DNA of 64,000 nucleotides from assembly GCF_022846655.1 (NCBI RefSeq), contig NZ_AP025667.1:5307001-5371000 (forward strand). The letters run 5' to 3'. A program made the position numbers and the translations under genes. Positions 1 through 42,191 of this stretch are shown here, one piece after another. Numbering within the stretch: the stretch's first letter is position 1; each line of letters opens with the position of its first letter. The DNA comes from Streptomyces seoulensis. GTDB taxonomy: Bacteria > Actinomycetota > Actinomycetes > Streptomycetales > Streptomycetaceae. The notes beneath the pieces were generated by a model that saw only the letters and a list, made by a program, of their open reading frames with translations, did not search any database and was not told the DNA's origin.

Positions 1-3044
<3,044 letters not shown>

Positions 3045-3048
<4 letters not shown>

Positions 3049-6005
3049 CGTGCTGCTCCAAAGTCGAAGTCGGCGTCGCTGGCGTAGGCGCCCGCCGTGA
3101 GGCGCCGCAGCACCGGCCCCTCGGGGGCGGTGGCGATCTCGTCCAGTGCCAGCAGGACGGAGTCCAGCAGGTGGTCGGCGGAGGCCCGTTCGTACAGCTC
3201 GGTGGAGTGCTCCAGGTCGCACACCAGGCGGTCGGGGCGGACGTGGACCTGGAGGTTGAGGTCGAACCGGGTGGTGCCGGGGTGGAGGAAGTCCAGCGAG
3301 GCGGTGAGCCCGGCCTCGGCGAACTCGTAGGAGTCGAGGTTCTGCAGGCCGAAGAAGGCGTCGATCAGCGGGTCGCGCAGTCCGGGCCGGCCCGCGCCCA
3401 GCTCGCGCACCAGCCGGTCGTAGGGGACGGCGCCCCGGTCCAGGGCGTCCTGGTGGCTCTCGCGCAGGTCCGCCACCAGGGCGCCGAGCGTGGTGTCCTC
3501 CTCCAGCCGGACGCGCAGCGGCACGGTCTGCACGAACATGCCGACCACGTCGGCGAGTTCGTGGTGGCCGCGGCCGTGCACGGGGGTGCCGACCACCAGG
3601 TCGGTGAGGCCACCGACGCGGGCCAGGGCGGTGGCGTAGGCGGCGAGCAGCACCACGAACGGGGTGGTGCCGTGCACGCGGGCCGTCTTCTCCACCGCGT
3701 CGGCGGCGACCGGGTCGCGCCGCACCCGGCCGCCCGCGTCGGTGGGGCGCGGCGGGCGCGGCCGGTCGGTGGGCAGGGTGCCGCCGCCGGGTGCTCCGGC
3801 GAGCGAGGTCAGCCAGGGGCCGAGGTCGTCGTCCCGCCCGGCGCACCAGCGGGCCGCGTCCAGCCAGCGCAGCGGCACGGGGGCGGGCGTCTCTCCGGCG
3901 AGCAGGGCGAGCAGTTCCCGCACGAGGACGCGGACCGAGACGCCGTCGGCCACGACGTGGTGCAGATCCAGCAGCAGCCCCCGGTCACCGGCGCGGCGGG
4001 CGCGCAGCAGCGGGGGCGCGGCGAGGTCGAAGGGACGTACGAACTCGCCTTCCGCGTCCTCGGGTTCGAGGCGCACGGTGACCCCGTCGACGACCTCCTG
4101 CCGGATGCCGTCCGCGTCGGCGGTCAGCCGCGTACGCAGAGCCTCGTGCCGCTCGACCAGGGCGTCCAGGGCGCCCTGGAGCCGCTCGGGGCCGACGGGC
4201 GCCCCGAAGTCCAGGCGTACGGGGATGTTGTACGCGACCGAGTCCGGGTCGGCCTGCCAGAGGGCGTACAGCCCGCGCTGGGCGGGGTGCGCCGGGCCGG
4301 TGCGGCCGGTGCCGCGCGGTACGGGCGCGCTGGCCTGGCCGGCATGCTCCAGCAGGGCGCGCATCCCGGCCAGGGTGGGGGCCGCGTAGACCTGGCGGAA
4401 GCCGAGCCTGCGGCCGAGGCGGGCCTCGATCCGGTCGAGCAGGACGCCCAGGCGTACGGAGTCGCCGCCGAGGGCGAAGAAGTCGCTGTCGGGGCCGATG
4501 GCCGCCGGGTCCTGGCCGAGCACCCGCGCCCACAGCCCGGTCAGCTCGTCCGGCGCCGGGGCGTCCTCGTGCGTCCCGTGCGTCCGGGGTGCGGGCAGCC
4601 GGGCGGTGTCGACCTTGCCGTTGGGGTTCAGCGGCAGGCGGTCCAGGACGGTGAGGTGGGCGGGGAGCAGATAGCGGGGCAGCCGTTCGGCGAGGGCCGT
4701 GCGCAGGGCGCCGGGGTCCATGCCGGTGACGGCGTACGCGCTCAGCCGGGCCTCCCCCGCCTCGTCGCGTACGGCGACCGTGTGGGCCTGGCGTACGGCG
4801 GGCAGGGCGAGCAGGGCGGCCGTGACCTCGGCGGGCTCCACCAGGTTGCCCAGGATCTTGACCTGCTGGTCGGCGCGCCCGTGGAAGCGGACCAGGCCGT
4901 CCTTCTCGCGGGTGACCAGGTCGCCGGTGCGGTAGCGGCCGCCGGGGAAGCGGGCCGCCGTCAGCCCGAGGTCACCGAGGTAGCCGCGCGCCACCCCGGC
5001 GCCGCCCACCCACAGCTCGCCCTCGGTGCCGTCCGGCACCGGCTGCCCGGCCTGGTCGCACACGTACAGCTCGGTGCCCGCGACGGCCCGGCCGACGGGC
5101 ACCGGGTCCGGGACGGGGGCGGTGACGCGGTGCACGGTGGTGAAGACGGTGTTCTCGGTGGGGCCGTAGCCGTTGTACAGCGCCAGTTCCGGACAGCGGG
5201 CGAGCACCCGTGCCGCGTGCCCCGCGGAGACGACGTCGCCGCCGGTCATCAGGGTGCGCAGGCCCGCGAACAGGGCCGGGTCGTGGTCGGCCATGCGGTG
5301 GAACAGGGGCGCCGTCAGCCAGGCGAACTCGATCCGCTCCCGGCGCAGGAACTCCGCGTACGCGGCCGGGCGGGCCATGGTCTCCGCGTCGGCGATGTGC
5401 AGCGAGCCCCCGTTCAGCAGCGCGCCCCACACCTCCAGCGTGGCGGCGTCGAACTCCGGGGCGGCACCGTGCGCGGCCCGCATCCCCACCGGCAGCCAGG
5501 GGTGCTCCGACGCGCACACCAGCCGCAGCACGCCCCGCTGTTCGACGACGACCCCCTTGGGGGTGCCGGTGCTGCCGGAGGTGAACATGACGTAGGCCGG
5601 GGGCGTGTCACCGGCGCCCTCGGACAGGGGCGCGGCGGTGCGCCCGGCCGCCCTCACCTCGGCCGCCGGCACCGATCCCGTCCCGGCGTCCGGCACGCCG
5701 ACGACGAGGCGCGGGCGGGCATGGTCCGTGATCTGCCGCAGCCGGGTGGCGGGCCAGCCGGGGTTGAGGGGCAGGTAGGCGGCTCCGGCGAGCACCGTGC
5801 CGACCAGTGCGACCACCCCGGCCGCCGAGCGCCCGCCGAGCAGACCGACGAGGTCTCCCCGGCGCACACCCAGCCGGACCAGTCCGCGCGCGAACTCCTC
5901 CGAAGCCGCCGCCAGTTCGGCGTAGGTCAGCCTCGTCGTGCCGTCGCTGACGGCCAGGGCGCCGGGTGTCCTGGCCGCCCGGTCCCGGAACAGTTCCGCG
6001 ATCAC
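3045..6005 (-). CDS. NRPS, A (Val-like) - PCP - C
   Basis: A 986-residue protein starting at GTG behind GGAGGAG. The A domain (about 1-470) has [17 protein letters not shown] and NGKVD motifs; its pocket reads D-A-L-W-M-G-G-V-F, very close to the valine family of codes (DALWxGGTF), so a branched aliphatic residue is likely. The PCP carries LGGDSV (about 515). The C domain (about 570-965) has an intact HHVVADG. There is no C domain before the A domain; the preceding gene ends in PCP, so this A-PCP either receives its partner from another protein's C domain or starts a chain. It lies 40 bp after the previous gene and overlaps the next by 4 bases. The terminal C domain is positioned to serve the following Ser module. 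Confidence 0.95.
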
Positions 6006-6045
6006 CTTGTGCTCCTCCCCCGTCGTGCGCCGCCCGGTCGGGCGG

Positions 6046-9000
6046 TCAGATCTGCTCGGCCAGGACGCGCAGCCGCGCCGCGAACTCCCCGGTCCCCTCC
6101 GCCCCGCCCTCCTCGGCGGCGCGCCGGCCCACCTCGGCGGTGAACGCGCCCAGCGTCGGGTTCTCGAAGAGCGCCCGCACGGGCACGGCGAGGCCGAGCA
6201 GGTCCTCGATGCCGTAGGTGACCTGGGTGACCAGCAGCGAGTGGCCGCCGAGGACGAAGAAGTCGTCCCCTGGGTCCGGTGCTGCGTCGGTGAGCAGCAC
6301 CTCGGCCCACAGCGCGCCCAGCACCCGGCCCAGCAGTTCCCCGTCCGGCCCCGGCAGTCCCGTCACCGGGGCGGGCGCGTGTGCCGCCGGGGCCTCGGGC
6401 GCCGTGCCGAGCGCGTCCAGTTCCGGCAGTTCGTACGCCGAGATCCGGCGCCCGGTGTCCGCCGCGAGCTGCCCGAGCAGGCGCAGCCAGGCCGCGCACA
6501 GCGTCTCGACGGTGGCCGCGTCGAACAGGTCGGTGCGGTAGGTGAAGGTGCCGCCCAGGGTGCCGTCGCGCTGCTCCAGCATCAGTTCCAGGTCGAACTT
6601 GGCGGTGCTGTAGGCCGGCCGCACCTCCTCGGCGGTGACGCCGGGCAGGCCGAGGGCGTCGCCGCCCGCGTCGTCGAGCGAGAACACCACCTGGAACACG
6701 GGGTTGTGGCCGAGGTCGCGGCGCGGGCGCAGCTCCTCCACCACGCGCTCGAAGGGCACGTCCTGGTGGGCGTAGCCGTCGAGCGCGGTGTCCCGGACGC
6801 GGGTGAGCAGGTCGGCGAAGACGGGGTCGTCGTCGACACGGGTGCGCAGTGCGAGCACGTTGGTGAAGAAGCCGAGCACCGGCTCGAGTTCGACGCGGGT
6901 CCGGCCCGAGGCGGGCGTGCCGACGACGAGTTCCGTGTCGCCGCCGGAGCGGGCGAGGAGGACGTCGAAGGCGGCGAGCAGCGTCATGAACAGGGTGGCG
7001 CCGCGCTCACGGCCGTAGGCGCGCAGCGCGGCGTACACATCGTCGGGGACGGTGAAGGCGACGGAGGCGCCCGCGCGGGTGACGGCGGGGGTGCGGGGCC
7101 GGTCCAGGGGCAGCGTGGTGGTGGCGGGGGCACCGGCGAGCCGTTCCCGCCAGTGCGCGAGGCCCCTGCGGCCCTCCTCGCCGTCCAGCCAGTCGCGCTG
7201 CCAGACCGCGAAGTCGGCGTACTGGAGGGGCAGCGGGGCGAGGTCGGCCGGGCGGCCCTCGGTGTGCGCGGTGTACAGCTCGGACAGCTCCCGCAGCAGC
7301 ACGCCAAAGGACCAGCCGTCGGTGGCGATGTGGTGCTGGCCGAGCAGGAGCAGGTGCTCGTCCTCGCCGGTGGCGACCAGGGTGGCCCGGATCAGCGGGC
7401 CGTGCTCCAGGTCGAAGGGGAGGAGTTCGTCGGCGCGGATCAGCTCGCGTACGGCGGCGTCGCGGGTGGTGGCGTCCAGGCCGGAGAGGTCGGCGCGCTT
7501 GAGCGGCACGCTCACCGTGTCCCGCACGAGCTGCACGGGACGCCCGGCGGTGCCGCGTACGTACACCGTGCGCAGCGCCTCGTGGCGGTCGGCGAGCGCC
7601 TGGAGGGCGGCGGCGAGGGCTTCGGTGTCGAGCGGGCCGCGCAGCCGGAGCGTCTCGGGGACGTTGTAGCTGACGTCGCCCTCGCCGAGCCGGTCGAGGA
7701 ACCAGAGCTGTTCCTGGGCGTAGGAGAGCGGGTGCCCGGCGGGGTCCCGGGGGACCGGGGTGACGGGGCGTTCCTCGCGGCCGTCGCCCGCGCGGGCCAG
7801 CTCGGCGGCGAGGGCGGCCACGGTCGGGTGCTGGTAGAGGACGCGCAGCGGCACGTCCCGGCCGAGCACCCGGCGCATCCGGGAGACGACCTGGGTCATC
7901 AGCAGCGAACTTCCGCCCAGGGCGAAGAAGTTGTCCGACCGGCCCACCTCGGTGAGCCCCAGCACCTCGGCCCAGATCCCGGCGAGGATCTCCTCCACCG
8001 GGGTCCGGGGCGCACCGCCGCGCGCGGTGGCGCCTCCGGCGGCGGAGGCGGGTTCGGGCAGCGCACGCCGGTTGATCTTGCCGTTGGCGTTCAGCGGCAT
8101 CTCGTCCAGGGTGACGAGCACCGAGGGCAGCATGTAGGCGGGGAGCCGGTCGACCAGGTAGGGGGTGAGGTCGGGGCGGGCGGCGGACACGAACGTGACG
8201 TAGCCGACCAGGCGGGTCTCCCCGGTGCCGCTCGCGGTGTGGACGACCACGACGGCGTTGTCCACGTCCGGGTGGGCGCGCAGCACGGACTCGATCTCGC
8301 CCAGTTCGATGCGGAAGCCGTTGACCTTCACCTGGTTGTCGATCCGGCCGAGGATCTCCAGCACGCCGTCGGGCCGGTACCGGGCGAGGTCGCCGGAGCG
8401 GTAGAGCCGGGCGCCGGGCTCGGCGGAGAACGGGTCGGGCAGATAGCGCTGGGCGGTGCGGGAGGCGTCCCGGTGGTAGCCGCGGCCGACGCCGGCCCCG
8501 CCGACGTACAGCTCGCCGGGCACGCCGACGGGCTGGGGCTGGAGGCGGTCGTTGAGGACGTAGACCTGGTTGTTGCCGGTGGGGCGGCCGATCGGGACGA
8601 TGCCCTCGATGACCTCGGGGACCTCCGCGCGGGCCAGGGTGGCGTTGTCGATGGCGGTCTCGCTGAGCCCGTACGCGGCGACGATCTGGGTGTCGGGGCG
8701 GCACAGGGTGCGCACCCGCATGTAGTCCCGCGCGTACCAGATGTCGCTGCCCGCGACGAGCAGGTCCAGGAAGGACAGGTCGGCGCCGGTCTCCTCCAGG
8801 TGGTCGACGAGCGCGGCCAGGATGGGGGTGATGAACTCGGCGCTGTTGACGTCCTCCGCCACCATCAGCCGGTACAGGTCCGGCGGGGACATGACCGTCT
8901 CGTGCGGGACGACGACCAGCTTGGCGCCGCTGAACAGGGCGCGGGTGGCGTCGGCGATGAAGATGTCGAAGGCGAAGCTCGTCATCTGCAGGTGCGAGCG

Positions 9001-10992
9001 CATCGGGTGGCCGCCCAGGTAGGCGGACTCCCAGAAGCGGAAGTAGTTCACGTAGTTGGCGTGCGTGACCATGGCGCACTTCGGGGTGCCGGTGGAGCCC
9101 GAGGTGTAGAACATGCAGGACAGGTTGTCCGGGCCGGCCTCGGCGTCCGGCGCGGTGCCGGGCAGGCCGGCCAGCAGTTCGGCCTCCTCGTCCAGCAGCA
9201 GGGCGCCCTGGACCGGGGGCAGGTCGCGCAGGGTGTCGGTGGTGGTCACGACCAGAGGTACGGCCGCGTGCGCCAGCATGTACTCCAGCCGCTCGCGCGG
9301 GTACTCGGGGTCGAGCGGCACGTACACGCCGCCCGACTTGAGCACGCCGAGGAAGGCGACGACGGTGTCCACGCCGCGTTCCATGCAGACGCCGACCGGG
9401 GTCTCCGCGCGCACCCCGCGCCGCCGGAGCAGATGGGCGAGCCGGTTGGCGCGGCGGTCGAGTTCGGCGTAGGTCAGCCGGTCCTCGCCCTTGACCACGG
9501 CGGGCGCGTCCGGGGTGCGGGCGACCTGCGCCTCGAACAGGGCGTGCATGGTGGGCTCTTCGCCGACCGGGAACGCTGTGTCGTTCCAGGCGCGTAGCTG
9601 GCGGTGCTCCTCCTCGGGGGTGAGCAGGGGCACGGTGGCCACGGGGGCGTCGGGCGCGGCGACCAGCTCGGTCAGGAGGCGGAGCCAGTGTCCGGCGGCG
9701 CGGCGCATGGTGGCGGCGTCGAAGAGGTCGGTCGCGTACTCCAGTTCGCCCTGGAAGCCGTCGCCCTTCTGGATGAGGTCGAGGCTCAGGTCGAACTTGG
9801 AGGTGAGCCGCTCGTCCTCCAGCAGCTCCGCGGTGAGCCCCGGCAGGGTCAGCTCGCCGGTCTGCCCGGCCGCCAGCATGCCGAAGCTGGCCTGCACCAG
9901 CGGGGAGTAGCTGGGGTCGCGTTCGGGCTCGACCACCCGGACCACGTCGTCGAACTGGACCTCCATGTTCTCGAAGGCCGCGTACACCGACTCGGCGACC
10001 CGCGCGAGCAGCGGGCGGAACCCGGCGGCGGGGTCCACGTCGGCGCGGATCGCCAGGGTGTTGACGAAGCAGCCGATCAGCGGGTCGAGGTCGGGTTCGG
10101 GGCGGCGGACGACGGGCACACCGACGGCCAGGTCGTGCTGGCCGGTGTAGCGGGCGAGCAGCACGAAGAAGGCGGACAGCATGACGGCGAACGGGGTGAC
10201 ACCCTCCTCCTCCGCCAGCCGCTCCACGGCGGAGGTGAGTTCCGGGCCCACCTCGAAGGGGGCAGCGGCGCCCTGGTAGCTCTGCACGGCGGGCCTGGGT
10301 CGGTCCGCCGGGAGCTGAAGGGTGGGCGGCGGGGTGGCGAACCGCTCCTGCCAGTACCGCAGTTGGCTTCCGACGTCGGCGGTGCGGCTGCGCTCGGCGT
10401 AGTCGGCGTACTGGACGGTCAGCGTGGGCAGTCCGGGCTCGCGGCCCTCGGTGTGCGCGGTGTACAGCTCGCCCAGTTCGGCGAGGAGGACGCCGCAGGA
10501 GGAGCCGTCGAAGACGATGTGGTGGAAGGTGAGCACCAGCACGTGGTCGGTGGCCCCGGCACGCACCAGGGCGGCCCGCAGGACCGGACCCTCGGCGAGG
10601 TCGAAGGGGGCGTGCGTCTCCTCGGTGACGAGCTTGCGCAGCAGTTCCTCGCGCTCGTCGACGGGGGCGGCGGACAGGTCGTGCACGGGCAGCGGCACAT
10701 GGGCGCCGGCCGTGGTGACCTGCACGGGGACACCGTCGCGGTCGGGGAAGCGGGTGCGCAGCACCTCGTGCCGGGTGACGATGTCGCGCAGGCAGCGCTG
10801 GAGCACCCCGAGGTCGAGGGCGCCGCGCAGCCGCAGCACGACGGGCAGGTTGTAGAGCGAGCCGCCGGGCTGGACGCGGTCCATGAACCAGAGCTGCTGC
10901 TGCGGCAGGGACAGCGGCCGGTCCGGGCCGTGGGCGTCCTCGGGTGCGGCGGCGGGGGTACGGCGGCGGGTGTGGCGCGGAACGATGGTCAT
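6046..10992 (-). CDS. NRPS, C-A-PCP-C-PCP with an A-less second module
   Basis: A 1648-residue protein, ATG overlapping the previous stop (ATGA). Domains: C1 about 20-450 (HHIVFDG intact), A about 460-975 ([18 protein letters not shown]), PCP1 with LGGSSL near 1029, C2 about 1070-1500 (HHIATDG intact), PCP2 with LGGHSL near 1584. The A domain is an unusual subtype: core A5, normally NxYGPTE, is AAYGLSE, and the pocket reads about D-I-A-E-L-A-A-I-D, which I cannot assign. The second module has no A domain, so PCP2 must be charged in trans, perhaps by the free A-PCP protein at 23058-24905 or another A domain of the cluster. The ORF extends far upstream of the chosen start, but that extension lies on the preceding NRPS in another frame and is not coding. 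Confidence 0.94.
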   Translation of the reverse strand: MTIVPRHTRRRTPAAAPEDAHGPDRPLSLPQQQLWFMDRVQPGGSLYNLPVVLRLRGALDLGVLQRCLRDIVTRHEVLRTRFPDRDGVPVQVTTAGAHVPLPVHDLSAAPVDEREELLRKLVTEETHAPFDLAEGPVLRAALVRAGATDHVLVLTFHHIVFDGSSCGVLLAELGELYTAHTEGREPGLPTLTVQYADYAERSRTADVGSQLRYWQERFATPPPTLQLPADRPRPAVQSYQGAAAPFEVGPELTSAVERLAEEEGVTPFAVMLSAFFVLLARYTGQHDLAVGVPVVRRPEPDLDPLIGCFVNTLAIRADVDPAAGFRPLLARVAESVYAAFENMEVQFDDVVRVVEPERDPSYSPLVQASFGMLAAGQTGELTLPGLTAELLEDERLTSKFDLSLDLIQKGDGFQGELEYATDLFDAATMRRAAGHWLRLLTELVAAPDAPVATVPLLTPEEEHRQLRAWNDTAFPVGEEPTMHALFEAQVARTPDAPAVVKGEDRLTYAELDRRANRLAHLLRRRGVRAETPVGVCMERGVDTVVAFLGVLKSGGVYVPLDPEYPRERLEYMLAHAAVPLVVTTTDTLRDLPPVQGALLLDEEAELLAGLPGTAPDAEAGPDNLSCMFYTSGSTGTPKCAMVTHANYVNYFRFWESAYLGGHPMRSHLQMTSFAFDIFIADATRALFSGAKLVVVPHETVMSPPDLYRLMVAEDVNSAEFITPILAALVDHLEETGADLSFLDLLVAGSDIWYARDYMRVRTLCRPDTQIVAAYGLSETAIDNATLARAEVPEVIEGIVPIGRPTGNNQVYVLNDRLQPQPVGVPGELYVGGAGVGRGYHRDASRTAQRYLPDPFSAEPGARLYRSGDLARYRPDGVLEILGRIDNQVKVNGFRIELGEIESVLRAHPDVDNAVVVVHTASGTGETRLVGYVTFVSAARPDLTPYLVDRLPAYMLPSVLVTLDEMPLNANGKINRRALPEPASAAGGATARGGAPRTPVEEILAGIWAEVLGLTEVGRSDNFFALGGSSLLMTQVVSRMRRVLGRDVPLRVLYQHPTVAALAAELARAGDGREERPVTPVPRDPAGHPLSYAQEQLWFLDRLGEGDVSYNVPETLRLRGPLDTEALAAALQALADRHEALRTVYVRGTAGRPVQLVRDTVSVPLKRADLSGLDATTRDAAVRELIRADELLPFDLEHGPLIRATLVATGEDEHLLLLGQHHIATDGWSFGVLLRELSELYTAHTEGRPADLAPLPLQYADFAVWQRDWLDGEEGRRGLAHWRERLAGAPATTTLPLDRPRTPAVTRAGASVAFTVPDDVYAALRAYGRERGATLFMTLLAAFDVLLARSGGDTELVVGTPASGRTRVELEPVLGFFTNVLALRTRVDDDPVFADLLTRVRDTALDGYAHQDVPFERVVEELRPRRDLGHNPVFQVVFSLDDAGGDALGLPGVTAEEVRPAYSTAKFDLELMLEQRDGTLGGTFTYRTDLFDAATVETLCAAWLRLLGQLAADTGRRISAYELPELDALGTAPEAPAAHAPAPVTGLPGPDGELLGRVLGALWAEVLLTDAAPDPGDDFFVLGGHSLLVTQVTYGIEDLLGLAVPVRALFENPTLGAFTAEVGRRAAEEGGAEGTGEFAARLRVLAEQI

Positions 10993-13900
10993 CGGGCGTC
11001 CTCCGTGCTGTCCCGGTGTGCTGCCAGTGCCTCGACCTCGGCGCGCAGCCGGTCGGCGTAGGCGTCGATCCGCTCGGCGCTCAGCGCGGCCGCGTCGTAC
11101 TGCACGACGAGCCGGGCGCCCGCGGGGCCGAGGTCGGCGTTGGAGGCGAGGGCGAATCCGACGTCCACTGTGTCGTCGTGCTCGGAGACCACGCGGGAGC
11201 CGTCCGTGGCGGGGGCGATGCCGGTGAAGCGGGTGAAGTTGAAGAAGGAGTCGAACAGGGGTCCCGTGGCAGCGAGTTGCTGGATGTCGGCGAGCGGCAG
11301 CAGATGGTGGCCCATGAGTGACTGCTCGTACTCCCAGAGCCGGGCGGCCAGTTCGGGGGCGCCGGGGTCGGTGCGGACGGGAAGGGTGTTGAGGAACAGG
11401 CCGAGGGTGCGGTCGCCGCCCTCCTCGGCGGGGCGGGCGCTGACCACCAGACCGGTGACGACCTCGCCGGAGCCGTCGGTGCCGAAGGCGGCGGCCAGGG
11501 CGCGGACGTGCGCGGCGAGCAGCAGCGACTTCACCGGCACCCCGGCCCGGCGCGCGGCCGCGTCCAGCGCGTCGGCGGTGGCTCCGGCGGGTTCCAGCAC
11601 GCGGGAGACGCCGATGGCGGGGACGTGTTCCCCGGCGAGCCGCAGCGGGTGCACGCCGTCCAGGGTGTCGCGCCAGAAGGCGCGGGTGCCGGTGTCCTCG
11701 CGGGCGGCGAGCTCGGCCTCGACGTGGTGCCGGTAGGGCAGCACGGGGGCGGACCGGGGGGCCGGGGTGCCGGTGCGGTGGTGGTCGAGGCGGGCCAGCA
11801 GTTCGCTGGTCATCAGGTGCAGGCTGAGGCCGTCCAGCACACCGTGGAAGTGGGTCTGCACCAGCTCGTAGGTGTCCTTGCCGGTGCGCAGGGCGTGCAG
11901 GCGCAGCATGGGGGCGCGCCAGTCGAACGGGGTGGCCTTCTGTGCGTCCACGACCTCGCGCACCCGGCGCGCCCGCTCCTGTTCGGGAAGCGCGGTGAGG
12001 TCCTCGGTGCGCACGGGCACGGTGGCCCGCTCGTGCACGAGCTGCATGGGCCGGCTGAACGCGGCCAGGTCGAAGGAGGTGCGCAGGATGTCGTGCGCGG
12101 CGGTGAGGTCCTCGGCGGCCGCGGCGAGCGCCTCCGGCGCCCAGGGGCCTCGGACGGTGTCGACGGTGACCACGTGGTAGGCGTGGCCGTCGCCCTCGGA
12201 GAGTTCGCCGAGGTAGACCATGCCGAGCTGCAGGGCGGTGAGCGGGTAGGCGTCGCTCACGCCCGCCGGGACCAGCGCCCGGTCGGCCGGGTCGAGCAGG
12301 GCGAAGGGCGCCCCCGCTGCCGGTTCCGCGGCCTGGGTGCCCTCGATGCCCGCGGCGAGGGCGCGGACGGTCTGGTTGCGGAACACGTCCCGCAGCGGGA
12401 AGGACAGGCCCGCCTTCACGGCGGCGGCGCGCATCCGGATGGCGCGGATGGAGTCGCCGCCGATGGCGAAGAAGTTGTCGTCGACGCCGATGTTCTCCCG
12501 GCCGAGCACCTCCTCCCAGATGCCGATGAGGGCGCGTTCGGTGGCGGTGGCGGGCTGGGCGGTGGTGCGGGGCCGCTCGGGCGCGGGGAGCGCGGCGCGG
12601 TCGATCTTGCCGTTGACGGTGAGCGGGAGGGCGTCCAGCAGGACCACGGTGGCCGGGACGAGGGGTTCGGGCAGCCGCTGGGCGAGCCACTGGCGCAGCA
12701 GGGCGGCGTCCGGCACGGCGACGGGCGGTTCGGCGGCCGGGCGGGGGTCGTCACGGTACTCGGGACGGACCGCGCACAGGGTGAACCGGTCGGTGCTCGT
12801 GAGGAGTTCGTCCTGTTCCCAGAACACCTCGAAGCCGTGTCCGCGCAGGTGCCCGGCGATCTCGGCGAGCCGTCCGTGCGGGGCGGCGCCGGTGTCGTCG
12901 TGGACCTCCATGGCGATCTGCTGGACCCGGGCGAGGTGCGCGTCGTCCAGGCCGCGCAATACGTCCCACTCGGCGCGCTGCACGTCGATCTTCAGCAGGT
13001 CGATCCGGTCGACCCCGGTCTCGGTGAGCACGTCGGACAGCCGGCGCAGCCGGGCCTGTTCCTCGCGCGGGGTGAAGCGCTCGGCGAGGATCTCGGAGAC
13101 CTCGCCGAGGAGTTCGTCGTCGCGCCGGTTCTCCAGGAAGGTCTGGACGAGCGCGATCTCGGCCGCGGGGTCGGCGTACTCGGCCTGGCCGGACATCATG
13201 GAGTAGCCGGGGTAGACGGTGAACGCGGCCGACTGCTCGCGGTCGGAGAGGCCGAAGCCGAAGACCTCGGTGGGGCCGGTGCGGTGGCGGAGGTTCTCGG
13301 TGAGCCGGGCGTGGGCCTCGGGCAGCGGCTCGAAGGCCAGGATGCGGGCGCCGGGGCAGGCCCGGTCCACGAAGAGCGAGAACATGCCGATGTTGGCGCC
13401 GACGTCCACGACGACCGCGTCCTCGCGCAGGGTGATCCCGCCGCGCAGATAGGTCTGCTGGACGAAGATCTCGTCGAACAGGTAGCGGGTCTCGTGCGGG
13501 TTGATCCCGGCGATGTCCTCGACGTTCAGCGGGCGCCCGGCCGTGCGGCGGGGCACGGCGTAGCCGACGAGGGTGCCGGTGCCGGCCGTCTCGTCCACCC
13601 GCCAGTCGGCCACGGCCTGGCCGACGGCCGGGTGCTGGGCGAGCACGGCGGCGATCTCGGCGGGCTCGGCCCGATAGCCGTTGATCTTGAGCTGTCCGTC
13701 GGCGCGCCCGAGGTGGGCGATGCGGCCGTCGGGCAGGAAGCGCACCCGGTCGCCGGTGCGGTAGCCGCGTACGCCGTCCACGGTCGTGAAGCGGGCGGCG
13801 GTGGCCTCCGGGTCCCCCCAGTAGCCGCGCGCCACCTGCGGCCCGGTGACGAACAGTTCGCCGGGCATGCCGGGCGGCACCGGCCGCCCCTCGGCGTCCA

Positions 13901-15995
13901 GCACCCGCACCCGGAAGCCGGGCAGGGGGCGGCCGACGGAGGGTCCCCCGTCCGGCGTGACGGGGGCGGCGGTGACGTCGACGGTGCACTCGGTGGGCCC
14001 GTAGACGTTGAAGGCGCGTACGCCCTCCAGCGTGGCTGCCCGCTGCCACAGCTCGGCGTCCAGCGGCTCGCCGCCGATCAGCAGCAGGCCGGGCAGGCGC
14101 TGGCCGCTCTCCCGGTGGTCGAGGACGAGCCGCAGGTGGGAGGGGGTGCAGTCGAGCACGTCGGCGCCCCGGTCGGCGAGTTCGCGCAGCAGCGCGGGCA
14201 CGTCGCGCCGGGTCTCCTCCAAGACCAGGCACAGGGAGCGCCCGGCGGCGAGCTGGACGAGCTGCTTCATGGAGGCGTCGAAGCCGAAGGAGGCGTTGAC
14301 GGCGACCGTCAGGTCCTCGGGGGCGTCCGCGTACACGGTGGCTTCGAGGGCGTCGAAGAGGTGGGCGGCGCTGCCGTGTTCGACGACGACCGGGCGGGGG
14401 GTGCCGGTGGAACCGGAGGTGAAGATGACGTACGCCGGGTCGCCGGGGCCGGCCGGGTGCGGTTCGGCGGCGGTGCCGGTGGCGGGGAGCGCGTCGAGTT
14501 CGAGGGTGGGCAGGGTGCCGACGAGGCCGCGCAGGGCGGCGGAGCCCTTGGGAGCGACGGCGAGGGCCGCGTCCACGGTGGTGGCGAGGCGGCGCAGCCA
14601 GGGCGCCGGGTGGGCCGGGTCGAGCGGGACGTACACGGCTCCGGCGCGCAGCACGCCGAGGAAGGCGGCGACGGTGACGGCGGAGCGTTCGCCGAGGACG
14701 ACGACGCGGTCACCGGGGCCGACGCCGTGTTCCCGCAGGTGTGCGGTCACCGAGGCGGCGGCGGCGTCGAGTTCGCCGAAGGTCAGGGTGGCGTCGGGGG
14801 CGGCGACGGCGGTGCGCGCGGGGTCGGCGCCGGTGACGCCCGCGTCCAGCAGGCCGAGCAGGGTGCGCTCGCCGAGGGGGACGGCGGTGCCCTCCCACCC
14901 GGCCAGCAGCGCGGCCTCGGCGTCCTCGGGGCGGCCGCCGGTGAGCTGGGCGGTGACGGCGCCGAGCAGCAGAGCGGCGGCGGCCGGGTCGGCCACGGCG
15001 GGGTCGGCGTGCAGGGCGAGGCGCAGGGTGGAGCCGTCGCGGGTGCAGGTCAGGTGCAGCGGGGCCTCGGGGCGGGGCGCGTCGAGCGTGGCCCCGGTGG
15101 CGCCGAGGGGGGCGAGCGGGCCGGGGTCGGCGGCGGTGACGTGGGCGAAGGACGCGGCCACGGGGTGGTCCAGCGGGGTGACCCGCAGGCTGCGGGCACG
15201 GATCGCGGCGAGCAGTCCGGCGGCGGCCTCGGCGGTGAGGGCGCGGGGGACCTCGCAGCGGACGGGGGCGGCGAGCGGGCCGACGACGCCCTGGGTGCCG
15301 TCCACGGACCGGCCGTCGTCGTCGACGGCGAGGGCCAGGGTCCCGGCGTCGGCGTACCGGCCGAGCGCGGTGACCCAGGCGGCCAGGGCGCGGGCCTCCG
15401 TGTCGCCGTCGGGGGCGGGGCATTCGGCGCGGTACTCCCCCACCGGCTCGCTCCCGGCGGCGCCGGGGGCCTGGGCGGGCAGGGTGAGCGCGGTCAGGGC
15501 GGCGGGGTCGGCGGGCAGGTCGGCGCGGTCCTGCTCGCTCTGCCACTCCACGACGTCCAGGAACTGGGTGCGGTCCTCGTCCTCCACCGGGGCGGCGCCG
15601 CCGTAGCAGGCGGCGAGCTCGGTGAGCAGGACGCGCAGGCTCTCGGGGTCGGCGATCAGCGCCGAGGCGTCCAGGACCAGTTCGGCCGGCCCGTGCACGA
15701 CCCGCAGCGGGGCCTCGCCGTCGGGGGCCTCGCCGTCCGGGGCGCCGTCGGCCGGGTGCACGTCGGCGGTGGCGTCGTCGCGGACGACCTGCACGGGCAG
15801 CCCGGTGCCGGTGAGGTCGCCGATGTCGAGGCGCAGCGTCTCGTGCCGGGCGACGAGCGCGGCGACGGCGGCGCGCAGCCGCTCGGGGTCCAGGGGCCCG
15901 GCGAGGCGGACCCGCGCGGTGACGCGCTCCTTCGGGGCGTCGGCCCACAGCCGCCGCTGCTGGGCGGAGAGCCGGTAACTGTCGACCGTGGTCAC
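10989..15995 (-). CDS. NRPS, degenerate C - A (Glu) interrupted by FkbM methyltransferase - PCP - C
   Basis: A 1668-residue protein, GTG start overlapping the previous stop. Residues 1 to about 380 have condensation-domain layout, but HHxxxDG is lost (SALIADP at that site), so it is probably inactive. The A domain starts about 385; its pocket reads D-A-K-D-L-G-V-V-D, the glutamate code known from surfactin synthetase. Between core A8 (QLKINGYRAE) and A9/A10 (LPEPLVP, NGKIDR near 1131) sits an insert of about 250 residues with a SAM-binding VVVDVGANIGMF motif, ILAFEPLPEA and IDLLKIDVQRAEWDVL: a FkbM-family (Methyltransf_21) methyltransferase. Then PCP (IGGDSI near 1175) and a C domain whose site reads FHGVLDG, keeping the catalytic second His. 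The MT probably O- or N-methylates the Glu unit; which atom is inference. A dead first C domain would suit a chain-starting Glu module. Confidence 0.94.
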   Translation of the reverse strand: MTTVDSYRLSAQQRRLWADAPKERVTARVRLAGPLDPERLRAAVAALVARHETLRLDIGDLTGTGLPVQVVRDDATADVHPADGAPDGEAPDGEAPLRVVHGPAELVLDASALIADPESLRVLLTELAACYGGAAPVEDEDRTQFLDVVEWQSEQDRADLPADPAALTALTLPAQAPGAAGSEPVGEYRAECPAPDGDTEARALAAWVTALGRYADAGTLALAVDDDGRSVDGTQGVVGPLAAPVRCEVPRALTAEAAAGLLAAIRARSLRVTPLDHPVAASFAHVTAADPGPLAPLGATGATLDAPRPEAPLHLTCTRDGSTLRLALHADPAVADPAAAALLLGAVTAQLTGGRPEDAEAALLAGWEGTAVPLGERTLLGLLDAGVTGADPARTAVAAPDATLTFGELDAAAASVTAHLREHGVGPGDRVVVLGERSAVTVAAFLGVLRAGAVYVPLDPAHPAPWLRRLATTVDAALAVAPKGSAALRGLVGTLPTLELDALPATGTAAEPHPAGPGDPAYVIFTSGSTGTPRPVVVEHGSAAHLFDALEATVYADAPEDLTVAVNASFGFDASMKQLVQLAAGRSLCLVLEETRRDVPALLRELADRGADVLDCTPSHLRLVLDHRESGQRLPGLLLIGGEPLDAELWQRAATLEGVRAFNVYGPTECTVDVTAAPVTPDGGPSVGRPLPGFRVRVLDAEGRPVPPGMPGELFVTGPQVARGYWGDPEATAARFTTVDGVRGYRTGDRVRFLPDGRIAHLGRADGQLKINGYRAEPAEIAAVLAQHPAVGQAVADWRVDETAGTGTLVGYAVPRRTAGRPLNVEDIAGINPHETRYLFDEIFVQQTYLRGGITLREDAVVVDVGANIGMFSLFVDRACPGARILAFEPLPEAHARLTENLRHRTGPTEVFGFGLSDREQSAAFTVYPGYSMMSGQAEYADPAAEIALVQTFLENRRDDELLGEVSEILAERFTPREEQARLRRLSDVLTETGVDRIDLLKIDVQRAEWDVLRGLDDAHLARVQQIAMEVHDDTGAAPHGRLAEIAGHLRGHGFEVFWEQDELLTSTDRFTLCAVRPEYRDDPRPAAEPPVAVPDAALLRQWLAQRLPEPLVPATVVLLDALPLTVNGKIDRAALPAPERPRTTAQPATATERALIGIWEEVLGRENIGVDDNFFAIGGDSIRAIRMRAAAVKAGLSFPLRDVFRNQTVRALAAGIEGTQAAEPAAGAPFALLDPADRALVPAGVSDAYPLTALQLGMVYLGELSEGDGHAYHVVTVDTVRGPWAPEALAAAAEDLTAAHDILRTSFDLAAFSRPMQLVHERATVPVRTEDLTALPEQERARRVREVVDAQKATPFDWRAPMLRLHALRTGKDTYELVQTHFHGVLDGLSLHLMTSELLARLDHHRTGTPAPRSAPVLPYRHHVEAELAAREDTGTRAFWRDTLDGVHPLRLAGEHVPAIGVSRVLEPAGATADALDAAARRAGVPVKSLLLAAHVRALAAAFGTDGSGEVVTGLVVSARPAEEGGDRTLGLFLNTLPVRTDPGAPELAARLWEYEQSLMGHHLLPLADIQQLAATGPLFDSFFNFTRFTGIAPATDGSRVVSEHDDTVDVGFALASNADLGPAGARLVVQYDAAALSAERIDAYADRLRAEVEALAAHRDSTEDAR

Positions 15996-16999
15996 AGGAC
16001 GTCTCGATTCACGTAGAGGTCGGACATGGCGACGAGGGTGCGGCGTTCGCCGGTGAAGGGGGCGCGGCCGTGGGTGGCGAGGAAGTTGTCCACCATCAGC
16101 ACGTCGCCGCGCCGCCACGGGAAGGAGACGGCAGCCTCCTCGTACAGCCCGCGGATCAAGGCGGCGACCTCGTCCTCGATGGGGGTGCCGTCGCCGTAGT
16201 AGACGTTGCGCGGCAGGCCCTCGGGGCCGTACTCGCGCAGGAGTGCCTCGCGCACCTCGGGCGGCATGTTGGAGGAGTGGAAGAGGTGGAGGTGGTTGAA
16301 CCACACCTCCTCGCCGGTGCGCGGGTGCCGGGCGGTGACCTGGCGGACCGCGCGGGTGCGCAGGCCGCCGTCGCCGGTCCACTCGAAGCCGGTGGCCGAC
16401 TGACGGCAGTACGCCTCCACGTCGGCCCGGTCGGTGCTCTGGAACACCTCGTGCCAGGGCAGGTCGAGGGCGTCGCCGTAGTTGCGGACGTAGAGCACGC
16501 CGTGCCGCTGGAAGCGCTCGCGGACCTCGGCCGGGATCAGCGGGGTGACCTTCCGCTCGTCGGCGAGCGGGGTGGCGCCGCCGGTCTCGGCGGGCAGGTC
16601 GCAGTAGAAGTACAGCCTGCTGGGCCAGTTGTGGGAGTACGACATCTCGTGGTGCAGCGGGATGGTCTGGTCGGAGGCGAACTCCGTGGAGGTGAAGACC
16701 TTGTCGGCGACCTCGTTGCGCGGCGCGGCCCGCTCCAGGTAGCCGAGCAGTTCGGGGCCGACGACGCGGGCGGCGCGGCCGAAGTGGTCCGGGTCCGGCA
16801 CCTTGAAGCCCCGGAAGAGCACGGCGCCGTGCCGGTCGAGGTGCTCGGTGACCTGCTCGCGGTTGGCGGTGAGATGGCCGACCAGGTCCAGTTCGGGGAA
16901 CCGGGACTCGACGACCATCCCGAAGTCACCGTCCAGGAAGGACGTGGTCACGGGTTCGACGGTGGTGCGGCGGGCGCGCCGTACGGGTCCCACGCTCAT
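15992..16999 (-). CDS. SyrP/TauD-family Fe(II)/2-oxoglutarate oxygenase 1
   Basis: A 335-residue enzyme of the TauD/TfdA fold. The facial-triad segment is LHHEMSY (HxE type, as in SyrP-like NRPS hydroxylases) near residue 117, and the distal histidine lies in NFLATHGRAPF, followed by the 2-oxoglutarate arginine in GERR near the C terminus. SyrP relatives hydroxylate the beta carbon of an amino acid tethered to a PCP, so the likely role is beta-hydroxylation of a bound residue. It overlaps both neighbours by 4 bases and lies between two NRPS genes, which supports a biosynthetic role. The substrate cannot be told from sequence; the nearby Glu module is one candidate. Confidence 0.92.
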   Translation of the reverse strand: MSVGPVRRARRTTVEPVTTSFLDGDFGMVVESRFPELDLVGHLTANREQVTEHLDRHGAVLFRGFKVPDPDHFGRAARVVGPELLGYLERAAPRNEVADKVFTSTEFASDQTIPLHHEMSYSHNWPSRLYFYCDLPAETGGATPLADERKVTPLIPAEVRERFQRHGVLYVRNYGDALDLPWHEVFQSTDRADVEAYCRQSATGFEWTGDGGLRTRAVRQVTARHPRTGEEVWFNHLHLFHSSNMPPEVREALLREYGPEGLPRNVYYGDGTPIEDEVAALIRGLYEEAAVSFPWRRGDVLMVDNFLATHGRAPFTGERRTLVAMSDLYVNRDVL

Positions 17000-18000
17000 C
17001 GCCCACCGTCCGCGGCGGAGCGGGGGTCGGCCATGGCGGCGAGGATCCGGCGCGGTCCCTCGAACGGCTCGCGGCCGTGCGCGCAGAGCATGTTCTCCAC
17101 CACCAGGACGTCTCCCTGCCGCCAGTCGAAGCCGACGGTCTCCCCGGTGTGGGCGGTGCGGATCTCCTCGACCACCTCGTCCTCGATGCGCTGCCCGTCG
17201 CCGTAGTAGGTGTGGTACGGCAGGTTCTCCTCGCCCAGCGCCGACAGCAGGCCGTCGCCGACCTCCTCGGGGAGGGTGGAGTTGTGGAAGAAGAGGGCGT
17301 GGTTGAACCAGGTCTCGTCGCCGGTGAGCGGATGGCGGTGGATCGCGGGCCTGCTCTGCCAGGTGCGCAGTTGGTCGCCGTCGACCCAGGACCAGGAGAT
17401 GCCGTTGCGCTCGCAGTACGCCTCGGCCTCCTCACGCCGCTCGGTCTGGAACGCCTCCTGCCAGGTGAGGCTGATGCCGGGCACGTAGTTGCGCACGTAG
17501 CGCACCCCGCGCTCGCGGAACCGCTCGACGGTGGCCTCGGAGAGCCGGCCGAGGATCCGCCTGCTGTCGGCGAGCGGGGTACGCCCGCCCGAGGTGGCCT
17601 CGCGCTGGCAGGAGAAGACGATCCTGAGCGGCCAGTCCAGCGTGTACGACTGCTCGTTGTGCAGGGCGATGTGCTGGTCGGCGGGGTGGTCGGTGGAGGT
17701 GTAGACGCCCTCGGTGACCTCGTGCCGGGGTGAGGAGCGCTCGCCGTAGCCGAGTACGTCGGTGGAGAGGGCCTCCATGAACGCCCGGAACTTCTCCGGG
17801 GTGTCGATGCCGAAGCCACGGAAGAGGACGGCGCCGGCCCGGTGGGCGAGGCGGTCCACGGTGGCCCGGTTGGCGGCCAGCCAGGCGGTCAGGTCGGTGG
17901 TGGAGTCGCCCCGCACCAGGGCGGGGAGGGTGCGGCCCTGCCAGGCGTCGTCCACCTCGACGGAGCCACCGCGTGCGCGACGGCGGGAAATGGTAGACAC
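16996..18000 (-). CDS. SyrP/TauD-family Fe(II)/2-oxoglutarate oxygenase 2
   Basis: A 334-residue paralogue of the next gene in the operon. It keeps the iron-binding LHNEQSY (HxE), the distal His in MLCAHGREPF and the following GPRR arginine. GTG start preceded by GGAGG at ideal spacing, 69 bp after the preceding NRPS stop, one of the larger gaps in this operon. The two oxygenases share layout but differ clearly along their length, so they probably hydroxylate different residues or positions rather than being a recent duplicate. Tandem oxygenases suggest a peptide with two hydroxylated amino acids; that is inference. Confidence 0.92.
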   Translation of the reverse strand: MSTISRRRARGGSVEVDDAWQGRTLPALVRGDSTTDLTAWLAANRATVDRLAHRAGAVLFRGFGIDTPEKFRAFMEALSTDVLGYGERSSPRHEVTEGVYTSTDHPADQHIALHNEQSYTLDWPLRIVFSCQREATSGGRTPLADSRRILGRLSEATVERFRERGVRYVRNYVPGISLTWQEAFQTERREEAEAYCERNGISWSWVDGDQLRTWQSRPAIHRHPLTGDETWFNHALFFHNSTLPEEVGDGLLSALGEENLPYHTYYGDGQRIEDEVVEEIRTAHTGETVGFDWRQGDVLVVENMLCAHGREPFEGPRRILAAMADPRSAADGGR

Positions 18001-23057: not shown

Positions 23058-24905
23058 TCACCGCTGCGCGGCGGCCGCGTGGACGGTGTCGACCGCCTGG
23101 GCCAGTTCGGCCAGCACCGGGTGGGCGAGCACGGTGCGGTGGCTGATGTCGGCGCCCAGGTCGCGGGCGATGCGCATCTTCATGCGGAAGGCGAGCAGCG
23201 AGTTGCCGCCGCGCTCGAAGAAGTGGTCGGTGCGGCCGATCTCCGGTTCGGCGAGCAGCTCCGCCCACAGCCCGGTGAGATACCGCTCGGTGGGTGACAG
23301 CGCGGCGGCCGGTGCCTCGTCGGCGCGGGCGCGGCGGCGTTCGGCGAGGAGGCCGAGCAGGGCGGCCACGTCGCGTTTGCCGTGGTGGTTGGCCGGTATC
23401 TCCGGAAGGATCACCAGGGAGCCGGGGACCATGAAGAACGGCAGCTCCTTCTCGGCCGCCTCACGCACCGCGGTCTCCTCCAGCGGGCCGTCGCCCGCCA
23501 CGAAGGCCACCAGCATCCGGTCGGTGCCCTCGCCCTCGGACACCACGACCGCGTCCCGCACCCCCGGCAGGGCGCGCATCAGCCGCTCCACCTCGCCGAG
23601 TTCCACACGGAAGCCGCGGATCTTGCACTGGTCGTCCGCCCGGCCCACGTAGTCGAGCACCCCGTCCTCGCGCAGCCGGACCAGGTCGCCGGTGCGGTAG
23701 ACCCGGCCGATTCTGGTGCCGTGGGGGTCCTGGACGAAGCGCTCCGCCGTCAGCTCGGGGGCGTCCAGGTAGCCGCGCGCCAACTGGGCCCCGCCGATCA
23801 GGAGTTCACCGGTCTCACCGGGGGCGGCCGGGCGGCCGTCGGTGAACACGTGCGCGGTGACGCCGTCGAGGGGGCGGCCGATGGGGATCGCGTCCCCCTC
23901 GGCGTCGCGGGCGGTGACGCGGTGGGCGGTGCAGGCGGTGGTGCTCTCGGCCGGGCCGTACAGGTTGTGCAGGCTGCCGGTGAAACCGCCGCCGAGGATG
24001 TTCCGGCAGGCGGCCGGGAGGATCACGTCGCCGGCCACCTGGAGGACGCGCAACGGGGCGAAGGCGTCCGGGTGTTCGGTGGCGACATGGTTGACGACCA
24101 TGGTGGGCACCAGCATCGCGGTGATCCCGAGCCGGGTGAGTTCGGCGCGGAACCCGGCCTCCAGCAGCTCGGGCACCGGCGGCAGCACGACCACCTCGGC
24201 ACCGGCCGCGAAGGTGTTCCAGATCTCGTAGTGGAACAGGTCGAAGGAGAGCGAGGAGATCTGGCCGACCCGGTCCTCGGCGGTGAGCGGGACCAGGGCG
24301 CGGTTCAGCGCGAAGGCGACGAGGTTGCGGTGCTCCAGCACGATCGCCTTGGGCGTGCCGGTGGAGCCGGAGGTGAACAGCACGCAGGCCGCGTCGGCAG
24401 GTTCCGGCCGGGCCGCGGCGGCGGGGGCGGCGCCGTACGCGGCGGGCAGCGGGACGACCAGGGTGCCGAGCCCGGCGAGCCGGGGCGCCCGGTCCTCGGA
24501 GGTGAGGACCGCCGCCGCGCCGCTCACGGTCAGCATCAGGTCACGGCGGCTGTCGGGGTAGCGGTCGTCCACGGCGACGTAGGCGGCACCCGCCTTCAGC
24601 ACGCCGAGGACGGCGGTGAACACGTCCACGGACCGGCCGGTGCAGAGCCCGACCCGGTCGCCGGGGCCGATGCCCCGCGCGGCCAGGAGGGCGGCGACCG
24701 CGTCCGCGCGCCGGTCGAGTCCGCGGTACGTGAGCACGGTGTCCCGGTCGCTCACCGCACGGCGGTCCGGGTACCGGGCCACGGTCCGGGCGAAGAGGTC
24801 CAGCAGCGAGAGCGGTCGGTCCGCCGGGTCGTGGTCACGCGGATCGGACACGTCGGACTTCCTCTTCTGCAGGGTGGATTCGGTTGTCGGGGCCGGGCCC
24901 GTCAT
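23058..24905 (-). CDS. Free-standing NRPS A-PCP didomain
   Basis: A 615-residue protein with an A domain (about 30-520; [25 protein letters not shown]) and a PCP ([10 protein letters not shown] near 570). No condensation domain is present, so it either primes the chain or loads and donates a residue to the two A-less modules of this cluster (PCP2 of the 6046-10992 protein and the C-PCP-TE protein). The pocket reads D-L-Y-L-Q-A-L-T-A by eye, distantly like small-residue codes, but I would not assign it. The ATG overlaps the previous stop (ATGA); an internal GTG about 18 codons later is a weaker alternative. MbtH from 32746-32970 may assist it. Confidence 0.92.
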
Positions 24906-32749: not shown

Positions 32750-32970
32750 CGCTCGCCCGCCGACTCGGCCCGCTCCATGTGGCGGCGCAGGCTGAGCGGA
32801 CGCATGTCGGTCCACACCTCTTCGATGTGGGCGAGGCACTCGGCCTTGGGGCCGCAGGGGCCGCTCGCCGTCCAGCCGGGGGGCATCGGGTCGTCCACCG
32901 GCCAGATCGAGTACTGCTCCTCGTGGTTGACGACGACCTGGTAGGTCACGGTGTCCTGGCTGTCGCTCAT
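32746..32970 (-). CDS. mbtH: MbtH-family NRPS accessory protein
   Basis: A 74-residue protein with the MbtH signature: [29 protein letters not shown] and [13 protein letters not shown]. These proteins bind NRPS adenylation domains and help them fold and work, so it likely serves one or more A domains of this operon. ATG start with AAGAAGGAC just upstream. A 60 bp gap separates it from the aminotransferase gene, and its stop overlaps the ABC gene start. Confidence 0.97.
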
Positions 32971-33030
32971 GTCCTTCTTCTCTCTCGCTGCTGTCGTGCC
33001 GGGCCGGGGGTCGGTCGGGCGGTGCCCGGC

Positions 33031-42026: not shown

Positions 42027-42191
42027 GTCGTTCTCCCCTCCCGGACCTGGCCACAGGCCCACACCCCGGCGCGTCCCGCGCACATCTGGGCATGCTAGCC
42101 GCCGGTTTCCGGGCTCGGCGTCCGCCGAATGTCACCGTTCAGTCGCAACTTCAACCAGTCGCCGAAACCCGGAATCCCCCAGCTCACCCGG

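What the first reader, a model, noticed from the sequence alone, without database searches (positions are those of the whole stretch)
12760..13600. FkbM methyltransferase inserted in a glutamate-activating A domain
The A domain with a D-A-K-D-L-G-V-V-D pocket (glutamate code) is split between cores A8 and A9 by about 250 residues carrying a VVVDVGANIGMF SAM motif typical of FkbM O-methyltransferases. Known interrupted A domains mostly carry other MT families acting on backbone N or side chain. A FkbM insert next to a carboxylate-bearing residue could make a glutamate methyl ester, an unusual building block.
Basis: partly seen in the sequence, partly recalled or inferred. Interest (0 to 1): 0.8.

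Follow-up and report, generated by a model that had tools for sequence, protein, structure and literature searches.

The report
AmbE-type glutamate module with embedded methyltransferase
A Streptomyces peptide-making enzyme that appears to load glutamate carries a built-in methyl-adding domain; with two neighbouring oxygenases it resembles the machinery that turns glutamate into the enzyme-blocking amino acid methoxyvinylglycine, rather than a maker of glutamate methyl ester.

Summary
In detail: an FkbM-family methyltransferase (PF05050, TIGR01444) sits between cores A8 and A9 of an adenylation domain with pocket D-A-K-D-L-G-V-V-D, minus strand, about 12756-13535. But it has a precedent. The 1668-residue protein is collinear with Pseudomonas aeruginosa AmbE, which activates glutamate and carries the same FkbM insert (52% identical). 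AmbE's insert is reported to O-methylate the 4-hydroxyl of carrier-bound dihydroxyglutamate on the way to methoxyvinylglycine (AMB). The window also has two TauD-type oxygenase genes directly upstream, as amb does, and an AmbE-like dehydrating condensation domain. FkbM inserts in glutamate-code A domains came with the oxygenase pair in 23 of 23 loci (window included, 21 from one genus); inserts in other A domains in 0 of 15, eight of these with serine- or threonine-like codes. A hydroxyl is therefore the likely methyl acceptor, and the methyl-ester reading is not supported. New is the setting: the module lacks AmbE's last carrier and thioesterase domains and lies among other NRPS genes, so a longer peptide with a methoxyvinylglycine-type residue is predicted. 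No chemistry was tested; the product is unknown.

The parts
10989..15995 (-). AmbE-like NRPS gene (1668 aa), domains Q-A-FkbM-A-T1-C2
   Evidence: GTG start; Pfam/NCBIfam; collinear with P. aeruginosa AmbE P0122 up to the end of C2
14889..15995 (-). N-terminal 'Q' region (said to be of unknown function in AmbE)
   Evidence: 121/348 identical to AmbE Q; name from PMC10880069 passages
13554..14852 (-). A domain, N-terminal part, pocket DAKDLGVVD
   Evidence: 181/427 identical to AmbE; code
13653..13709 (-). core motif A8 (GRADGQLKINGYRAEPAEI)
   Evidence: motif name recalled
12756..13535 (-). FkbM methyltransferase insert
   Evidence: PF05050, TIGR01444; 133/257 identical to AmbE-MT
13380..13415 (-). 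SAM motif I VVVDVGANIGMF
   Evidence: AmbE has VVLDVGANIGLF
12585..12746 (-). A domain, C-terminal part with A9 and A10
   Evidence: PF13193 positions 42-76; 23/53 identical to AmbE
12345..12548 (-). carrier domain T1 (GGDSIRAI)
   Evidence: PF00550; 39/68 identical to AmbE T1
10992..12308 (-). AmbE-C2-like (CmodAA, dehydrating) condensation domain, FHGVLDG motif
   Evidence: best solved-structure match 7r9x AmbE, E 5.4e-57, next McyA 4.6e-51; equivalents of H1497, D1726, Q1747 kept, R1605 replaced by K
15992..16999 (-). TauD1, AmbD-like 2-oxoglutarate oxygenase
   Evidence: PF02668; H116-x-E118, H310, R319 present in 124 of 124 aligned rows; 65% to P0230, named 'Protein AmbD' by UniRef
16996..18000 (-). 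TauD2, AmbC-like by gene order only, 2-oxoglutarate oxygenase
   Evidence: PF02668; same metal-site residues
18070..23268 (-). NRPS with two A, one C, two PCP
6046..10992 (-). NRPS with two C, one A, two PCP
3045..6017 (-). NRPS A-PCP-C (the domain order reported for AmbB)
   Evidence: AmbB order from PMC10880069
1..3048 (-). NRPS gene running off the window; in the genome 2094 aa with two A, one C, two PCP and a TE
23058..24905 (-). NRPS A-PCP
25650..27959 (-). NRPS C-PCP-TE
32746..33030 (-). MbtH-like protein
   Evidence: PF03621
29289..32749 (-). two ABC transporter genes (export is a guess)
   Evidence: PF00664, PF00005

Best explanation
This is an AmbE-type glutamate module. The A domain activates L-Glu and loads it on carrier T1 (inferred from the code and AmbE). 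TauD2 and TauD1 hydroxylate the bound Glu at C3 and C4 (inferred from AmbC/AmbD). The embedded FkbM domain transfers methyl from SAM to the 4-hydroxyl, giving 3-hydroxy-4-methoxyglutamyl-T1 (inferred from AmbE-MT). The following C2 domain dehydrates C2-C3, and loss of the side-chain carboxyl as CO2 shifts the double bond to a methoxyvinylglycine-type residue. That residue is passed into a longer peptide, because this protein lacks AmbE's T2-TE and lies among other NRPS genes. Shown here: domain identity, collinearity, conserved residues, conserved gene association. Inferred: every reaction.
For: Collinear with AmbE: Q 35%, A 42%, MT 52%, T1 57%, C2 44%. AmbE's own MT is PF05050. C2's best solved match is AmbE 7r9x (197 bits; McyA 177). 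In 96 C2 domains of FkbM-in-A proteins (of 125 tried; those with a match over 380 residues), position 1605 is K/R in 96, D1726 is D in 95, Q1747 is Q in 91; five ordinary C domains of the same gene set have F/Y, V/T and E/T there. Glu-type code in 124 of 125 aligned A domains, chosen by MT or C2 similarity. TauD2-TauD1 pair upstream in 23 of 23 Glu-type loci (22 fetched plus window) against 0 of 15 non-Glu FkbM-in-A loci, one of which (L084) ends 1.5 kb upstream and is uninformative. Of the 15, eight have Ser- or Thr-like codes and seven an unassigned DAHH-type code. The window MT groups with AmbE's (98/88). Q1006 and R1070 are in 37 of 37 Glu-type MTs and 0 of 8 Ser/Thr-type.
Against: No chemistry was tested. 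P. aeruginosa AmbC and AmbD were not retrieved for direct comparison. In the window C2 the first His of HHxxxDG is F, R1605 is K, H1632 is S, R1679/R1680 are H/L, D1728 is G and D1734 aligns to N (gap placement unsure). Six MTs outside an A-domain frame (L093-L096, L041, L044) fall among the Glu-type MTs; surroundings of 19-20 kb were read for four, and one (L095) has a TauD nearby. 21 of the 22 fetched Glu-type loci are from one genus. T2 and TE are missing, so the last AMB steps may not run the same way.
Confidence: 0.75

Rival explanations
1. The MT methylates a hydroxylated glutamate, but the residue is not converted to methoxyvinylglycine: the methoxy (and hydroxy or dehydro) glutamate keeps its carboxyl, or the 3-hydroxyl is the acceptor.
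For: No T2-TE in the window protein; several C2 positions differ from AmbE; 12 of 127 relatives show no C2 in the same protein, some perhaps fragments.
Against: The oxygenase pair, a C2-like domain and the Glu code occur together in the Glu-type loci examined (C2 46-50% to the window's in the 21 actinomycete loci, 25% in L050); H1497, D1726 and Q1747 equivalents are kept.
Confidence: 0.17
2. One reading: the MT makes the side-chain methyl ester of glutamate.
For: The predicted substrate carries a carboxylate (code).
Against: AmbE-MT, 52% identical, is reported to methylate a hydroxyl (PMC10880069 passages); two oxygenases accompany it; 8 of 15 other FkbM-in-A loci have Ser/Thr-like codes; a methyl ester would block the decarboxylation of the AMB route (inference).
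Confidence: 0.04
3. Backbone N-methylation, as many A8-A9 inserts do.
For: EreM shows that an FkbM-family enzyme can N-methylate (PMC9259500 passages); the A-MT-A model's first Foldseek match is the interrupted A domain 5wmm.
Against: No N-MT family among the Pfam matches; the closest characterised homolog known to me is an O-MT.
Confidence: 0.03
4. The insert is a relic without activity.
For: None found.
Against: Open frame without stops; SAM motif and the LLKIDVQ and EVHD motifs as in AmbE; model pLDDT 90.7.
Confidence: 0.01

Closest known systems
AmbE of Pseudomonas aeruginosa (AMB / methoxyvinylglycine biosynthesis), P0122; C2 structure 7r9x
   Same: Q-A(Glu)-FkbM-T1-C2 order, FkbM family, position of insert, CmodAA-like C2; two 2-oxoglutarate oxygenases in the gene cluster (PMC8968710 passages)
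   Different: No T2-TE after C2; code DAKDLGVVD against DSKDLGLVN; lies among several other NRPS genes of an actinomycete
KtzH (kutzneride, O-methyl-Ser interrupted A domain)
   Same: A8-A9 insert that O-methylates a side-chain hydroxyl (PMC11355689 passages)
   Different: Serine supplies its own hydroxyl; the MT family of KtzH was not tested here
5wmm, interrupted A domain AMA4 (TioS, recalled)
   Same: First Foldseek match of the A-MT-A model, E 5.8e-46
   Different: rmsd 21.9 over 938 columns, so domain order is shared rather than orientation; backbone N-methylation reported for TioS (PMC11355689 passages)
Rhizobium rhizoryzae plasmid locus NZ_CP049249.1 (L050)
   Same: A - TauD - TauD - AmbE-like order; Glu-type code DSKDLGVVN
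   Different: TE-like match at the end; C2 only 25% (window) and 28% (AmbE) identical; unannotated

Membership tests
FkbM-family methyltransferase | Match to PF05050 / TIGR01444 above curated cut-off | tested here: met
   56.5 (cut-off 22.7) and 106.7 bits (cut-off 37.7)
FkbM-family methyltransferase | SAM-dependent methyl transfer | not testable with these tools
   Only motif conservation seen
Interrupted A domain (A8-A9 type) | MT domain between cores A8 and A9 of one A domain | tested here: met
   model and 5wmm match
AmbE-type module | Q-A-MT-T1-C2 order with FkbM MT | tested here: met
AmbE-type module | Glutamate-activating A domain | tested here: inconclusive
   Code resembles AmbE's (124 of 125 aligned sequences of that type); no assay
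AmbE-type module | Two 2-oxoglutarate oxygenase genes beside it | tested here: met
   Genes adjacent, metal-site residues kept; activity not tested; not compared with P. aeruginosa AmbC/AmbD
AmbE-type module | Dehydrating CmodAA-type C2 domain | tested here: inconclusive
   Best match AmbE C2 and K1605, D1726, Q1747 present, but first His, H1632, R1679, R1680 and D1728 not kept; dehydration not testable
AmbE-type module | T2-TE after C2 | tested here: not met
   Protein ends after C2; 33 of 127 proteins, this one included, end MT-T-C2
AMB biosynthetic system (ambABCDE) | AmbB-like Ala A-T-C enzyme | tested here: inconclusive
   3045-6017 has the A-PCP-C order, pocket DALWMGGVF; not compared with AmbB; there are several further NRPS genes
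AMB biosynthetic system (ambABCDE) | LysE-type exporter AmbA | tested here: inconclusive
   No LysE-type Pfam match among the window genes scanned, but 28007-29350 had no match at all and not every gene was scanned; ABC transporters are present
Backbone N-methyltransferase insert | Match to an N-MT family | tested here: not met
   PF05050 the only methyltransferase among five Pfam families at E<=0.01

The most novel reading that the evidence does not exclude
Actinomycetes carry an AMB-type cassette (two oxygenases plus a Glu-FkbM-C2 module) inside larger assembly lines, common in one genus (seen in 21 of 101 genomes searched; Micromonospora by a named member) and scattered elsewhere. They would so make longer peptides that hold a methoxyvinylglycine-type residue, a PLP-enzyme inhibitor that I know only as a free amino acid or small peptide such as AMB.
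Probability: 0.45. Interest if true: 0.7.

Novelty: new variant of a known kind. Interest (0 to 1): 0.5.

Why it matters
It suggests a testable sequence rule: FkbM inserts in glutamate-code A domains came with two oxygenase genes (23 of 23 loci), those in serine- or threonine-like A domains did not (0 of 8, one uninformative), as expected if the methyl acceptor is a hydroxyl in each case. It also points to unassigned actinomycete gene clusters: the cassette was seen in 21 of 101 genomes searched of one genus, though among the loci read from 199 genomes of the window's own genus only the window's was of this type. Such clusters may make peptides with an oxyvinylglycine-type residue; oxyvinylglycines inhibit PLP-dependent enzymes (PMC10880069 passages).

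Tried and rejected
Glutamate methyl ester and backbone N-methylation were considered and set aside (see rivals).

The genome-contig scan with the AmbE C2 sequence returned 14 loci, none from Pseudomonas, so P. aeruginosa ambC/ambD were not seen. A search from the Rhizobium oxygenase did not show them among the 120 listed of 422 matches. TauD1 = AmbD-like rests on a UniRef name (P0230) and gene order, TauD2 = AmbC-like on order alone.

The MT alone found no relative among solved structures at E<=0.001. The VIA-align list is filled by A-domain matches and does not speak for or against the MT. Plasmid hit H29 (L051) is an FkbM match outside an A-domain frame among unrelated genes.

Papers: seen as passages only: PMC8968710, PMC6128175, PMC11342130, PMC10880069, PMC9259500, PMC4357302, PMC11355689, PMC12181424. 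Not held: PMC8341866 (Lundy 2020, known from a reference list), 10.1021/jacs.1c13404 (recalled, then also seen in a reference list) and 10.1002/anie.201713419 (recalled); earlier notice of actinomycete AmbE-like clusters there cannot be excluded. 'AmbE' with 'FkbM' gave 0 papers in the held library. By title and abstract start I saw none on such clusters in the listings (15 listed of 348; 25 of 80; 7 of 7).

An error of mine: one search numbered C2 positions after 1680 one residue off, because P0122 has one residue more than 7r9x there; one search replaces it.

Full report
What is there. The gene is on the minus strand at 10989-15995 (GTG start, 1668 aa); third-position GC is 0.92 over the longer ORF 10989-16382. 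Pfam finds AMP-binding, an FkbM methyltransferase, the tail of AMP-binding_C, a carrier domain and condensation-type stretches; NCBIfam TIGR01444 gives 106.7 bits. In the whole 6.54 Mb genome this is the one FkbM match over the cut-off, of two matches. The insert lies between A8 and A9.

Comparison with AmbE. The C-terminal condensation domain's best solved match is AmbE 7r9x (E 5.4e-57; McyA next, 4.6e-51). A search keyed on that domain found the full P. aeruginosa AmbE, P0122, whose precomputed Pfam list includes PF05050. The window protein aligns with it domain by domain: Q 121/348, A 181/427, MT 133/257, A tail 23/53, T1 39/68, C2 184/421 identical. AmbE goes on with T2 and TE, which the window protein lacks. 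[quoted passage not shown]

The oxygenases. Directly upstream lie two TauD-family genes, 15992-16999 and 16996-18000. Both have H-x-E, H and R at positions kept in 124 of 124 aligned rows. In Rhizobium rhizoryzae the order A - TauD - TauD - AmbE-like recurs; its first TauD scores higher with the window's TauD2 (263 against 238 bits) and its second with TauD1 (283 against 249).

A natural control. I fetched 40 stretches around FkbM relatives and added four loci held already (44 rows). FkbM inserts in Glu-code A domains: L057-L076 (20), L053 and L050, 22 loci, all with the TauD2-TauD1 pair on the same strand about 4.4 and 3.4 kb before the MT; with the window 23 of 23. FkbM inserts in other A domains: L077-L082 and L084-L092, 15 loci, none with a tblastn match to either TauD at E<=1e-10 in the stretch; in L084 the contig ends 1.5 kb upstream, so it says nothing. 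Five loci where the MT is not in an A-domain frame (L083, L093-L096) were left out of both counts; of these L095 has a TauD 0.9 kb upstream. 21 of the 22 are from one genus (that of G469), so lineages are few and no probability is claimed. Codes of the 15: six DVWHxSL-type (Ser, recalled), one DVPHFSLVE, one DFWNVGMVH (Thr, recalled) and seven DAHHxGG-type (unassigned).

How common. In the genus of G469, 37 of 101 genomes have an FkbM relative at E<=1e-20, 21 with the cassette. In the window's own genus 33 of 199 genomes have a relative; of the 29 loci read besides the window's (one per genome at most) seven are in A-domain frames, none of Glu type. In the class, 7 of 296. Named proteins of Glu type from other Streptomyces exist, such as P0002 from S. 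tendae. Numbers of scored candidates were capped, so those counts are lower bounds.

Specificity and tree. Of 127 sequences (126 proteins and the window; P0001 is 99% the window's own MT), two were dropped for short upstream sequence; 124 of 125 have a D-[ASG]-K-D-[LM]-G-x-V-[DN] pocket, the exception being P0029. They were chosen by MT or C2 similarity. In a 64-row tree the window MT falls with other Glu-type inserts and the AmbE clade (98/88), apart from the Ser/Thr-type (83/97). Six MTs outside an A-domain frame fall among the Glu type (two, L041 and L044, on a long branch), and the rows P0008, P0014, P0017, P0021 and P0025 are not resolved with the rest, so Glu-type inserts are not one strict clade (5 changes; the bootstrap had not settled, and long branches are flagged). 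Q1006 and R1070 are constant in 37 of 37 Glu-type MTs and absent from 8 of 8 Ser/Thr-type; a role in holding the side-chain carboxylate is a guess.

C2. Of 125 proteins tried, 96 gave a C2 match over 380 residues. All 96 keep H1497, D1501 and G1502; 1605 is K or R in 96, D1726 is D in 95, D1734 in 87, Q1747 in 91, while H1632 is H in 3 and D1728 is D in 12. Five ordinary C domains of the same gene set have F/Y at 1605, V/T at 1726 and E/T at 1747; a sixth, in the gene at 1-3048, has K1605 but Q and H at 1726 and 1747. The window has F for the first His, K1605, S1632, D1726, N at 1734 and Q1747.

Structure. The A-FkbM-A model has pLDDT 90.7 and pTM 0.75 (58-row alignment). The first Foldseek match is 5wmm, an interrupted A domain (E 5.8e-46, TM 0.57, rmsd 21.9).

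The setting. Minus-strand NRPS, MbtH, ABC transporter, aminotransferase and ProA/ProB-like genes run from 36483 down past the window's start. Pockets of the other A domains suggest Ser (DVWHFSLVDK) and a Dab/Dap-like residue in the gene at 1-3048 and Arg/Orn-like at 6046-10992 (amino acids recalled). The peptide sequence cannot be read from this, and that these genes form one assembly line is inferred from their order.

Conclusion. Observation confirmed; chemistry most likely O-methylation of a hydroxyl installed by the two oxygenases, in an AmbE-type module placed in a longer assembly line. No step of the chemistry is shown here.

Noticed in passing
window 1-3048 and L055 (G000:C1:5303501-5310500): The NRPS gene running off the window (2094 aa) has a second AmbE-C2-like condensation domain (35% to AmbE C2) after a Ser-code A domain, with Ala in place of the second His of HHxxxDG and K, R, R at the 1605, 1679, 1680 positions.
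   Followed up: partly
L052:12414-15804 (just downstream of the window): PALP enzyme, ornithine cyclodeaminase-like and Orn/DAP decarboxylase genes; the first two recall the SbnA/SbnB pair for diaminopropionate (recalled), which would fit the Dab/Dap-like code.
   Followed up: partly
window 33031-36483: Aminotransferase, aldehyde dehydrogenase (ProA-like) and amino acid kinase with PUA (ProB-like) genes at the head of the gene set, perhaps precursor supply from glutamate.
   Followed up: no
L095 (G179:C1:6264900-6284800), around 8600-10365: FkbM outside any A domain, among the AmbE-type MTs in the tree, 0.9 kb after a TauD gene and in an NRPS region with an AmbE-C2-like domain (35% to the window's C2): perhaps a split version.
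   Followed up: partly
L086-L092: FkbM inserts in A domains with an unassigned DAHHxGG-type pocket, no TauD match nearby.
   Followed up: no
window 28007-29350 and 24902-26086: Two ORFs in the gene set without any Pfam match at E<=0.001.
   Followed up: no
window 38430-39035: ORF with a Scabin-like domain (PF22596), outside the NRPS genes.
   Followed up: no
window 40794-43274: Two neighbouring L,D-transpeptidase genes with Ig-like domains.
   Followed up: no
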